A program made the translations under genes and the position numbers. Shown here piece by piece: positions 50,510-53,866 of a stretch of 64,000 bases of DNA. Under the pieces are notes generated by a model that was not told the origin of the DNA, did not search any database, and saw only the letters and a list, made by a program, of their open reading frames with translations. Location: assembly GCF_900143275.1 (NCBI RefSeq), contig NZ_FSRO01000001.1:1568116-1632115 (forward strand). Direction: 5' to 3'. Each line of letters opens with the position of its first letter. Position 1 is the first letter of the stretch. Source of the stretch: Nitrosomonas cryotolerans ATCC 49181. GTDB taxonomy: Bacteria; Pseudomonadota; Gammaproteobacteria; Burkholderiales; Nitrosomonadaceae.

Positions 50510-50983
50510 TTATTGGATAACAAATGATGTGAATAATACGTCAAGAATCTCTTCTTGCATGATCTCTGAATCAATTGTTTGCCTAATCTCATCAGTAATC
50601 TCTGCACTTAATTGCTGTTTACCAGCTATGGAAAGAATTTCTGTTGGCTTTTTGCTGGATAGTAATAATAGGATACGATTACGTATCTCAGGCATTTGTT
50701 TTTTAATAACATTGACTACGTCAGTTTCTTGAGTTTTGACAGTGAGTCCTACTTGCAGGTACTGGCTATCTTCTTCTGGTTGAAGGTTGACAGTGAAGGT
50801 CTCTATGTCAATGAATTTCACTGGTTTTTTATGGGATTGTGTGGTTTCTCCTGTTGTATCCAGGTTCTGTATAACATACCACGCGCCGCCTGCACCACTT
50901 CCAATGGCTATTATCGCAATCAGAATTATCGGCAATAAGTTCTTCTTATTTTTGGTGTTTTCCATGCTAGTAGTTGTTGACAT
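50510..50983 (-). CDS. fliL: Flagellar basal body protein FliL
   Basis: A 157-aa inner-membrane protein with one helix (~17-38, LLPIILIAIIAIGSGAGGAWYVI) and a periplasmic FliL domain (FIDIETFTVNLQPEEDSQYLQVGLTVK ... MPEIRNRILLLLSSKK). It interacts with stators around the motor. An AAGGAA precedes the ATG. This is the first gene on the left side of the IS insertion that separates it from fliK. Confidence 0.92.
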   Translation of the reverse strand: MSTTTSMENTKNKKNLLPIILIAIIAIGSGAGGAWYVIQNLDTTGETTQSHKKPVKFIDIETFTVNLQPEEDSQYLQVGLTVKTQETDVVNVIKKQMPEIRNRILLLLSSKKPTEILSIAGKQQLSAEITDEIRQTIDSEIMQEEILDVLFTSFVIQ

Positions 50984-51109
50984 TTTTATTCCTTATGCGA
51001 CAGGTCAATTATGTAAGAATAAGAAAGGGGGGAATATAACAAACAGCAGCCGAATTCATGGCTATTTCCAGATACGGAAAATGAGCCTAAATCTTTAGTC
51101 TTATGTTCA

Positions 51110-51129
51110 GAGACTTTTGCAAAAGTCTC
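51110..51129. repeat. 20-bp palindrome made of two joined MITE A ends
   Basis: GAGACTTTTGCAAAAGTCTC is a perfect palindrome and equals the terminal repeat of MITE family A joined to its inverse, with the core missing. No flanking direct repeat is visible. Confidence 0.6.
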
Positions 51130-51371
51130 CATGTGCCTGCCGAGAATCACACAACGCAATCCAATTTCGCGTGTGCCGAATGTGGGTACGCAGCAGAAAA
51201 TGCAGACCTCAACGCGGCCATCAATATTCTAAGGGCAGGGCATGCCCAGCTCGCCTGTCAAGTGAACGATACAGTCATGTCGTCAGCAATAAGAATTCAC
51301 CGAAGTCATCTACCCCATTCCGGGGTAGATACAGCAGGAATCGCCTGTCTTTAGACGGGGGACGATGTCAA
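51130..51371 (+). pseudogene. 3' relic of a TnpB gene with right-end hairpin
   Basis: The C-terminal zinc finger and RuvC end of a TnpB, reading HVPAENHTTQSNFACAEC, then NADLNAAINILRAGHAQLA. After the stop at 51354, GTCTTTAGACGGGGG and a TCAA at 51368-51371 look like a right end. The N-terminal three-quarters of the gene are missing. It is a different lineage from the two complete TnpBs here. Confidence 0.8.
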
Positions 51372-51439
51372 TAAACGAGCGGTTATTATAGCGTATAGGG
51401 CCCAATACGATATGGGTGGGCCAGTAGCTTCGCTTTATC

Positions 51440-52740
51440 ATCTCAACTTCCGGAAAACCCCGGTCTTAAGGCCGAGGATGGATAGGGAGTCAGCTTCGTT
51501 GATACTAAAGCCTGTTTTTCACCTATTTCTGTTAAAGTGTGTGAGTGGAAATGAAGCGCGCATACAAATTCAGGTTTTACCCAACTTTTGAGCAAGAAAC
51601 TATTCTGGCTCAAACATTCGGGTGTGCTCGGTTTGTCTATAATCGCATGTTGCACGTTCGTTCTGATGCTTGGTATACCGAGAAAAAAAGAATCGGGTAT
51701 CATGCTACCTCCTCTTTGTTGACCGAGTTAAAAAAAGAGCCTGAATTTGAATGGCTGAACAAAGTTTCCAGTGTTCCTGTGCAGCAATCTCTCCGCCACC
51801 TGCAAACGGCATTTGGTAATTTCTTTGCCAAACGAGCCAAATACCCGTCATTCAAAAGCAAGCATGAGAAGCAATCGGCTGAATACACGTCCAGCGCCTT
51901 CAAGTGGGACGGTAAGTCTCTGAAACTGGCGAAGATGAAAGATCCACTGAATATCAGATGGTCGCGCACCCTTCCTAAGGCGACAAAACTAACGATTGCA
52001 ACAGTCTCTAAAGACTCAGCGAGTCGATACCATGTTTCTATGCTTTGCGACGACTCTGTTGCGCGAAAGCCAAGGGTTAGCGGCAAAGTCGGCATTGACT
52101 TAGGATTAACGCACTTCGCTATTCTTTCTACGGGCGAGAAGATTGCGTCTCCTAACACGCTACGAAAGAATGAAACCAGGCTTGCTAAGCTGCAACGCAA
52201 GCTATCTAAAAAGCGCAAAGGGTCGGCCAATAGACAAAAAGCCAGACTGAAAGTAGCGCGACTACATGCAGGAATTGCTGATGCTCGTAAAGACTTTCTA
52301 CATAAACTCTCAACACGGCTAGTGAACGAAAACCAAGTGATAGCTGTAGCGTCTTTAGCTGTTAGCAATATGAAGAAAAATCGTTGCCTCGCAAAATCAA
52401 TTTCCGATGTAGGATGGGGTGAATTTGTGCGGCAATTAGAATACAAGTCGCTGTGGTACGGGCGAGAGCTTGTAGGTATTGACCGATGGTATCCAAGCAG
52501 CAAACGCTGCTCGGGATGTGGGCATACCGTAAACAAGATGCCTTTGAATGTGCGTGAATGGACTTGTCCGGAATGCGGATCAATCCATGATCGAGACATC
52601 AACGCAGCGCGTAATGTTTTGGCCGCTGGACTGGCGGTGTCAGCCCTTGGAGAATCTATAAGTCCTGTTTGCATTTAGGTGCGTCCGGGTTGGATTCGTT
52701 GAATTGGGAATCCCCTTCGTTTACGGAGGGGAGCAGTCAA
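51440..52740 (+). mobile_element. tnpB-only IS200/IS605-type element inserted in the fli operon
   Basis: A stand-alone element (IS1341 arrangement) without tnpA. A left hairpin (CGGTC-TTAA-GGCCG, near 51461-51476) is present. The right end carries CCCCTTCG-TTTA-CGGAGGGG (52712-52731) and TCAA (52737-52740). It lies between fliK and fliL, opposite in direction to them. The left ~130 bases are repeated at 60476-60605. Confidence 0.8.
51551..52678 (+). CDS. tnpB: TnpB with Glu-to-Ala change in the RuvC active site
   Basis: A 375-aa TnpB with a complete frame and start at ATG 51551 (GTG 51545 is also in frame). Asp183 (GIDLGLTHF), Asp349 (HDRDINAARNVL) and the zinc finger (C320, C323, C339, C342) are intact. 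The second RuvC residue, normally Glu in the VxVExLxVxNM motif, is Ala267 (VIAVASLAVSNM; codon GCG at 52349-52351). This should abolish DNA cleavage but need not prevent RNA-guided binding. The gene is antisense to the flagellar operon in which it lies. Confidence 0.88.
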   Translation: MKRAYKFRFYPTFEQETILAQTFGCARFVYNRMLHVRSDAWYTEKKRIGYHATSSLLTELKKEPEFEWLNKVSSVPVQQSLRHLQTAFGNFFAKRAKYPSFKSKHEKQSAEYTSSAFKWDGKSLKLAKMKDPLNIRWSRTLPKATKLTIATVSKDSASRYHVSMLCDDSVARKPRVSGKVGIDLGLTHFAILSTGEKIASPNTLRKNETRLAKLQRKLSKKRKGSANRQKARLKVARLHAGIADARKDFLHKLSTRLVNENQVIAVASLAVSNMKKNRCLAKSISDVGWGEFVRQLEYKSLWYGRELVGIDRWYPSSKRCSGCGHTVNKMPLNVREWTCPECGSIHDRDINAARNVLAAGLAVSALGESISPVCI

Positions 52741-52760
52741 AACGGCTTTGTCTTGCTTGA
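52712..52760 (+). ncRNA. Predicted 3' part of the omega-RNA and guide of the second TnpB
   Basis: Right-end hairpin (52712-52731) and TCAA (52737-52740), after which the ~20 bases from 52741 would be the guide. These bases lie just outside the fliK stop. Prediction only, from known TnpB architecture. Confidence 0.4.
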
Positions 52761-52774
52761 GACCTGGTTGTTGA

Positions 52775-53866
52775 TCAAGCAAAAGTATTGACAATCCCCT
52801 GATGCTGATTAGATTGAATATGTGTCTCAATCTGACTAGCAGGCGCATCATGCGTACTTATTCTGCCAATAGGCAATCTTGATGGTGTATGTTGACGGTG
52901 CCCGGTATTGGCTTGCTGTTGAAATGAGTCTGCACCAATCAGGACATTCCCGAGCTCAATTCCGCTTTCTGACATCATTTCTTTTAACCTGGGTAGAGCT
53001 GCTTCAATTGCTTCACGTACAGCTAAATGAGGTGATGCGAACTGGGCTGTGGCTTGAGCACCCTGTTCATTTGTGATATTTAGTAAGACTTCGATCGGGC
53101 CAAGATGAGCTGGGTTTAAACGAATCTCAGCTGTTTGACCTTGCTGGTTCGACAGCCATACTATTTTTTGGGCAAATTCGTTATTCCATTTTGGTTGTCC
53201 AGCATGGGTATCAAGGTTGATACTGTCTATATCGAGTGTGAGGGGAGAAGTGATAGATGTCGTACTACTCGTTATACCTATTTGATGTGCAGAATCTGGT
53301 AGTAGCAAAGTCGTGAGTTCTCCTGTGTTAGAGAAAATGGTTTGGCTGCTTTCTGTAGAGAGCGGTGGTGTTCTGCTGGAAGCAGCAAAATCTGCCGAGC
53401 TAAAGAACTGTTTGTTGATTTGATTCAGTGTGCCGCTTCCTGACAGGTCTGGCTGTAGCACCTGATGAGTCGTTAGTGATGAGGCGTTGGGACCTGGTGT
53501 CTGCTGGTGGCTACCGGCATATTGATATGGCTTGCTGATCAATAGTGCTGGTAGTAAGAGAAATGGCGTTATTTCGGTATTGATCGTGTTTTCAACGCTG
53601 GTATCGGGTGTCGTACTATTTCTTTCATCTGTTTGTATTGGTTCCGATGAATTTATGATGATCCCTGAAGACGATGTCTTATCATAGATTTCATGAGGAG
53701 CTGGGATGTGGTTCTTTGGTTCATGCACAGCGGTTTCTTTCGAAATTTCTCGCATCATTACTTTTTCGAATGGTTCATTGACGTCAGTGTCTGAGTTAAC
53801 TAACGTTATCGGATTATCGGGTAAAACGTGTGTCTGTGGCGAAATCAATATATTGGATATCGGCAT
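52775..53866 (-). CDS. fliK: Flagellar hook-length control protein FliK
   Basis: A 363-aa protein. The N-terminal ~230 residues are polar and low complexity, and the C-terminal Flg_hook domain holds QGQTAEIRLNPAHLGPIEVLLNITNEQGAQATAQFASPHLAVREAIEAALPRLKEMMSESGIEL, the diagnostic part that switches the export specificity from hook to filament. The reading frame is complete although the IS element lies only ~34 bases after its stop. Confidence 0.92.
   Translation of the reverse strand: MPISNILISPQTHVLPDNPITLVNSDTDVNEPFEKVMMREISKETAVHEPKNHIPAPHEIYDKTSSSGIIINSSEPIQTDERNSTTPDTSVENTINTEITPFLLLPALLISKPYQYAGSHQQTPGPNASSLTTHQVLQPDLSGSGTLNQINKQFFSSADFAASSRTPPLSTESSQTIFSNTGELTTLLLPDSAHQIGITSSTTSITSPLTLDIDSINLDTHAGQPKWNNEFAQKIVWLSNQQGQTAEIRLNPAHLGPIEVLLNITNEQGAQATAQFASPHLAVREAIEAALPRLKEMMSESGIELGNVLIGADSFQQQANTGHRQHTPSRLPIGRISTHDAPASQIETHIQSNQHQGIVNTFA

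What the first reader, a model, noticed from the sequence alone, without database searches (positions are those of the whole stretch)
51551..52760. TnpB with Glu-to-Ala RuvC mutation lying antisense in the flagellar operon
Two TnpBs here allow a direct comparison: the IS605 copy has Glu272 in VVVENL, this one has Ala267 in VIAVASL (codon GCG, one base from GAG). Both Asp residues, the zinc finger and the right-end hairpin are intact. Known: nuclease-dead TnpB homologues (TldR) have been exapted as RNA-guided repressors, several associated with flagellar genes. The location between fliK and fliL is therefore striking, although a neutral inactivating mutation after insertion is the simpler reading.
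Basis: partly seen in the sequence, partly recalled or inferred. Interest (0 to 1): 0.75.

Follow-up and report, generated by a model that had tools for sequence, protein, structure and literature searches.

The report
One dead copy of multicopy transposon
A jumping-gene nuclease between two flagellar genes of a Nitrosomonas-like bacterium has lost a catalytic residue, but it is one of about twenty scattered copies of the same element, two non-flagellar copies carry the same change, and nothing found here shows that it was recruited to control flagella.

Summary
A TnpB-only IS200/IS605-type element (51434-52740) has Ala (GCG) where ISDra2 TnpB has catalytic E278; both Asp residues, the zinc-ribbon cysteines and the right-end hairpin are kept. 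It lies between fliK and fliL on the opposite strand.

The TldR (nuclease-dead repressor) lead is not supported. The genome (a Nitrosomonas relative) holds 19 near full-length copies: 16 with Glu, 3 with Ala. The other two Ala copies lie beside non-flagellar genes and carry a stop codon. The window copy's five polarisable coding changes all alter the protein. None of 52 fliL loci from related genomes (at most 42 distinct contigs) has a TnpB nearby. Its guide-RNA region is identical to the majority of the sister copies, so Glu-bearing sisters should share the guide. The target TTTAT and right end resemble those of a Y1-transposase element in the same genome, so spread in trans is likely.

Best reading: an ordinary, recently spread insertion sequence with an inactivated copy in a spacer between flagellar genes. 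Two loose ends: TTTAT plus an 11-nt guide match inside phoR (about 0.003 expected, before allowing for several looks), and a diverged Ala copy whose branch shows purifying selection before it broke.

The parts
51434..51438 (+). TTTAT, target motif (presumed TAM) at the left end
   Evidence: Aligned left edge begins TTTAT in 19 of 19 copies with different outer flanks; TTTAT at the left of 13 of 14 IS605-type copies read. No empty site was found, so target and element edge are not separated by proof
51439..52740 (+). TnpB-only IS200/IS605-type (IS1341-like, name recalled) element
   Evidence: Left edge in 19 of 19 copies, right edge AGCAGTCAA in 18 of 19; the copy L040/L026 has a different right end
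51551..52678 (+). tnpB, 375 aa from ATG; GTG at 51545 stands where the majority of sister copies have ATG
52349..52351 (+). codon 267 GCG (Ala) in place of GAG (Glu) of RuvC-II
52097..52099 (+). codon 183, RuvC-I Asp, kept
   Evidence: alignment with ISDra2 TnpB
52595..52597 (+). codon 349, RuvC-III Asp, kept
   Evidence: alignment with ISDra2 TnpB
52711..52732 (+). right-end hairpin, 9 pairs; presumed 3' part of the omega-RNA
   Evidence: no difference from the majority of sister copies after 52410
52741..52760 (+). presumed guide: first 20 bases outside the right end
51103..51371 (+). 3' remnant of another TnpB element between this element and fliL
   Evidence: Cas12f1-like_TNB 24.8 bits, just under its cut-off of 26.3; right-end-like ...GATGTCAA read by eye
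52775..53866 (-). fliK (Flg_hook domain)
50510..50983 (-). fliL

Best explanation
It is one copy of a TnpB-only IS200/IS605-type insertion sequence that has spread recently through this genome. Shown: 19 near full-length copies with the same left edge at different sites, 3 of them with Ala at the catalytic Glu. Inferred: the element has no transposase of its own and is moved in trans by the Y1 TnpA of the co-resident IS605-type element, which has the same TTTAT at its left and a similar right-end hairpin; this copy inserted 3' of TTTAT in the spacer between fliK and the region upstream of fliL; its TnpB cannot cut; the mutation is tolerated because tnpB is dispensable for transposition and because intact sister TnpBs should be able to process and use the same omega-RNA. 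The location next to flagellar genes is coincidence.
For: 19 near full-length copies; Glu in 16 of 19, Ala in 3 of 19. Ala copies L010 and L027 each have a stop in frame and lie beside a GH100 invertase gene and a short-chain dehydrogenase gene, and beside an ABC-ATPase gene and a GNAT/autoinducer-synthase-like gene. Stop or frameshift in 2 of 3 Ala copies against 2 of 16 Glu copies (chance 0.10). L009: 5 of 5 outgroup-polarised coding changes alter the protein, 2 more unresolved. TTTAT and similar right end in IS605-type copies with Y1 domain. Omega-RNA region without difference from the majority. No TnpB of either family in 52 of 52 loci with FliL. tnpB dispensable for transposition (PMC8612924 abstract, seen).
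Against: The window frame is still open. 5 to 0 is compatible with neutrality but too few to prove it (chance of no synonymous change 0.27, or 0.18 with transitions weighted fourfold). The diverged Ala copy L027 has 20 synonymous to 20 non-synonymous derived changes (P 0.0002; 0.004 with transitions weighted fourfold), so its lineage was long under purifying selection, and whether it already had Ala then is unknown. TTTAT plus an 11-nt exact guide match in phoR has 0.0034 expected. Broken frames in Ala against Glu copies do not differ significantly (0.10).
Confidence: 0.9

Rival explanations
1. The copy is a young TldR: a nuclease-dead TnpB that uses the omega-RNA of its own right end to bind DNA and repress a host gene, flagellar or other.
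For: Catalytic Glu replaced, rest of the protein and the omega-RNA region kept. Flagellin-linked TldRs are known (PMC13418256, passages seen). TTTAT plus 11 exact guide bases in phoR codons 16-21. Guides as short as 6 nt suffice for one TldR (PMC13418256, passage).
Against: TTTAT plus 15 guide bases with up to 3 mismatches finds only the element's own flank in the window. Longest TTTAT-adjacent guide prefix in the window is 5 nt, within the 3-6 of the 19 copies. 16-nt guide with up to 3 mismatches: 31 sites against 29 for the reversed control. TTTAT plus 6 nt: 5 sites against 3 for the control; the ORFs around the 5 do not look flagellar (apart from phoR, read by eye, not searched). Element ends intact. 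Glu sisters should load the same RNA. Other Ala copies are broken and not flagellar.
Confidence: 0.04
2. Ala variants are a subfamily that spreads because a dead nuclease costs less, moved and kept by the other elements in trans.
For: The three Ala copies share seven differences from the majority; three of these (51499, 51514, 51553) are in none of the 8 fragments that cover them.
Against: Only 3 of 19 copies, 2 of them broken. The history is mosaic: at 20 coding sites L027 has the outgroup state and L009 does not, so descent, recombination and repeated mutation cannot be separated.
Confidence: 0.05
3. Assembly or sequencing error at codon 267.
For: The change is a single base.
Against: Same base in 3 loci with different flanks.
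Confidence: 0.01

Closest known systems
TnpB-only IS200/IS605 elements (IS1341 group; name recalled)
   Same: Single tnpB, no transposase between the ends, hairpin at the right end, T-rich motif at the left, many copies beside a Y1-bearing IS605-type element
   Different: This copy lacks the catalytic Glu
ISDra2 TnpB (8bf8, 8h1j)
   Same: Aligned over residues 3-370; D191 and D361 positions kept
   Different: E278 position is Ala; E278A compromises plasmid interference (PMC8612924, passage)
TldR, TnpB-like nuclease-dead repressors (Wiegand 2024: not held; PMC13418256: passages seen)
   Same: RuvC site mutated, RNA-binding parts apparently kept, near flagellar genes
   Different: No conserved gene association, element ends intact, near-identical sister copies with Glu, no flagellar target found

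Membership tests
TnpB-only IS200/IS605 element | TnpB domains | tested here: met
TnpB-only IS200/IS605 element | fixed ends at many sites, target motif at the left, no transposase inside | tested here: met
   right end fixed in 18 of 19
TnpB-only IS200/IS605 element | moved in trans by a Y1 TnpA | tested here: inconclusive
   Y1-bearing copies with TTTAT (13 of 14 read) and a similar right end are present; movement itself not testable
TldR | inactivated RuvC site | tested here: met
   one residue of three replaced
TldR | conserved association with a non-transposon gene | tested here: not met
   0 of 52 fliL loci with TnpB, at most 42 distinct contigs; other Ala copies beside other genes
TldR | loss of the transposon context (feature recalled) | tested here: not met
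   both element ends as in sister copies
TldR | guide matches a host target next to a TAM | tested here: inconclusive
   no flagellar match; 11-nt match inside phoR coding sequence
TldR | RNA-guided repression | not testable with these tools
   needs experiment

The most novel reading that the evidence does not exclude
The Ala copy, loaded with its own omega-RNA, acts as a newborn RNA-guided repressor of phoR (phosphate sensor kinase) through TTTAT plus an 11-nt seed at codons 16-21 of that gene, about 64 kb from the element: an exaptation caught at its start, still inside a mobile element with Glu-bearing sisters.
Probability: 0.03. Interest if true: 0.75.

Novelty: new member of a known kind. 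Interest (0 to 1): 0.15.

Why it matters
It shows how a lone RuvC substitution beside a suggestive gene can look like a TldR, and that comparing the sister copies in the same genome is the quickest test. If the phoR lead held, it would be a view of TldR birth inside a transposon family that is still mobile.

Tried and rejected
Rejected: TldR at the flagellar locus (above); sequencing error (three loci with the same base). Without result: the search for related loci with this TnpB in genome contigs gave no relative; Rfam gave two sub-threshold hits, one of them RAGATH-18 at 52644-52710 with 24.2 bits against a cut-off of 44.9; an empty site for the copy that seems inserted in another TnpB (L042) was not found in the 5 loci compared; the guides of the two other Ala copies have no TTTAT plus 7-nt site in the genome; the promoter and terminator scan found 1 against 3.2 and 3 against 2.4 in shuffles. 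The tree groups the three Ala copies, but the outgroup test shows mosaic sequences, so I do not lean on that tree. Papers: one search listed 10 of 195 papers that hold two of the words Nitrosomonas, TnpB and insertion sequence, and none of the 10 holds Nitrosomonas; this is no claim that nothing is in print. Wiegand 2024, the main TldR paper, is not held; what I say of it is recalled or second-hand.

The odds did not change.

Full report
OBSERVATION. The tnpB frame is at 51545-52678 on the + strand (GTG; ATG at 51551). Its three Pfam domains are those of TnpB. In the alignment with ISDra2 TnpB D183, A267 and D349 stand at D191, E278 and D361 by my count of the columns. PMC8612924 calls D191A and E278A catalytically dead (passages). 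The neighbours are fliK and fliL on the - strand.

THE GENOME. The window is 64 kb of a 2.93-Mb genome in two contigs with 85 matches to the TnpB zinc-ribbon family and 55 to the Y1 transposase family. Of the 80 loci kept for FliM (543 of the 594 matched stretches encoded a relative), the 33 best (65-74 percent identity) include 28 titled Nitrosomonas; the other 5 have broader titles, and the following rows are Duganella, Massilia and other genera at 61-64 percent. A genome that the tool counts as the same genus (G007) has a contig of the same length and fliM position as Nitrosomonas ureae Nm13. I take the host as a Nitrosomonas by this; no name was given.

SPREAD OF THE FAMILY. 4 of 61 genomes of the genus, the own one included, match this TnpB at E 0.001 or better, and the best other match is 44 percent identical. 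Of 399 genomes drawn from the order, 5 match at 1e-70 or better, the own one included; the best other is one copy at 75 percent identity. The 10 related TnpB loci that I read all have Glu at this place.

SISTER COPIES. The own genome has 19 near full-length copies (where 40 of 95 candidates were scored; the family search, with all 103 candidates scored, also shows 19 at 83.8-94.2 bits). All 19 begin TTTAT, and 18 of 19 end AGCAGTCAA; L040/L026 has a right end like that of the IS605-type copies. At the RuvC-II position Glu stands in 16 of 19 and Ala in 3 of 19: the window copy L009, L010 (C1:1229708, TGA in frame) and L027 (C1:1333660, 93 percent identical, TAG at codon 300 of the consensus). 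L010 lies beside GH100 invertase and short-chain dehydrogenase genes, L027 beside an ABC-ATPase gene and an acetyltransferase/autoinducer-synthase-like gene. Of the 16 Glu copies, one has a stop (L026) and one a frameshift (L022). Two of 3 against 2 of 16 broken has chance 0.10, so this difference alone proves nothing.

HISTORY OF THE ALA. L009 and L010 share two differences (51982, 52022) that L027 lacks, and both share seven differences from the majority with L027. At three of the seven (51499, 51514, 51553) none of the 8 fragment copies that cover them has the Ala-copy state; at 51475, 51535 and 51543 that state is in 3, 8 and 5 of 8 fragments; 52350 is covered by none. Against common descent, at 20 coding sites the 75-percent outgroup agrees with L027 and not with the majority, and L009 has none of these states. 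The copies are therefore mosaic, and descent, recombination or repeated mutation cannot be told apart. L009's polarised coding changes are 5 non-synonymous and 0 synonymous, 2 unresolved. L027's are 20 and 20 on its own side, 20 on the majority's side and 26 unresolved; 20 of 40 synonymous has P 0.0002, or 0.004 with transitions weighted fourfold. That goes against a simple 'dead and drifting' story for L027, though not for the window copy.

ELEMENT AND MOBILITY. Fourteen IS605-type copies, chosen from those with both a Y1 match and a TnpB match, were read: 13 of 14 show TTTATC at the left, and their right end resembles the right end here with few differences. From this I infer mobilisation in trans. 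The right-end hairpin folds with z -1.4, and 17 of 200 shuffles fold as well; its presence in two families is the better evidence.

LOCATION. Of 53 loci from relatives, 36 had fliK and fliL both readable, 16 had no FliK match and 1 no FliL. No TnpB of either family was found in any of the 52 with FliL. Ten contigs were met twice through the two collections, judged by equal length, six of them among the 36; so at most 42 distinct contigs of 52 and 30 of 36. Two of the 36 (L098, L130) are not titled or ranked as Nitrosomonas. The fliK-fliL gap, with starts set by rule, is 110-470 bp in the 36 and 1791 bp here. In 15 aligned sequences before fliL (own and 14 that I chose from the 36), AAATAG is kept in 14 of 15 (not in L130), own included, followed by a TATTTG-like stretch that reads TGTTTG in the own sequence and TATTTA in two relatives. 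This stretch lies on the fliL side of the insertion, so the element probably sits between two transcription units. A 3' remnant of another TnpB lies in the same spacer: the spacer has taken an insertion before.

GUIDE. The 16 bases after the right end match 31 places in the genome with up to 3 mismatches, the site itself included, against 29 for the reversed control. TTTAT plus 6 guide bases occurs 5 times against 3 for the control, 2.4 expected. One of the 5, C1:1555519, extends to 11 guide bases, inside a gene with PhoR, HisKA and HATPase domains, at codons 16-21. About 0.0034 such sites are expected, but I looked at several lengths and mismatch levels, so the true surprise is less. The ORFs around the other four sites do not look flagellar (read by eye, not searched). 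Within the window the longest TTTAT-adjacent match is 5 bases; all 19 guides range from 3 to 6. The guides of the two other Ala copies have no TTTAT plus 7-base site in the genome; guides of Glu copies were not searched genome-wide.

CONCLUSION. An ordinary multicopy insertion sequence with one catalytically damaged copy beside flagellar genes. By the tests that could be made it is not a TldR. The phoR match and the purifying selection on L027's branch are loose ends.

Noticed in passing
G000:C1:1555519 (L269:1501-1516): TTTAT plus 11 exact bases of this copy's guide at codons 16-21 of a phoR-like gene; about 0.0034 expected by chance before allowing for several looks.
   Followed up: partly
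L029-L034: Six of nine fragment loci examined share one internal tnpB deletion at a 10-bp repeat, with different flanks: a MITE-like set that spread without an intact TnpB, or a deletion that recurs at the repeat.
   Followed up: partly
L027 (C1:1333660): Diverged Ala copy with 20 synonymous to 20 non-synonymous derived changes and one stop: its lineage was under purifying selection before it broke.
   Followed up: partly
L040/L026 (C1:88115-89426): A Glu copy whose right end reads like that of the IS605-type elements, perhaps a recombinant between the two families.
   Followed up: no
window 50984-51110: Stretch AAATAG...TATTTG upstream of fliL kept in Nitrosomonas relatives, perhaps a flagellar regulator site (resemblance to FlhDC boxes recalled, not tested).
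   Followed up: partly
window 52644-52710: Sub-threshold Rfam match to RAGATH-18 (E 0.1) over the presumed omega-RNA; that family might include TnpB omega-RNAs.
   Followed up: no
whole genome G000: 85 TnpB-family and 55 Y1-transposase matches in 2.93 Mb: a heavy IS200/IS605 load.
   Followed up: no
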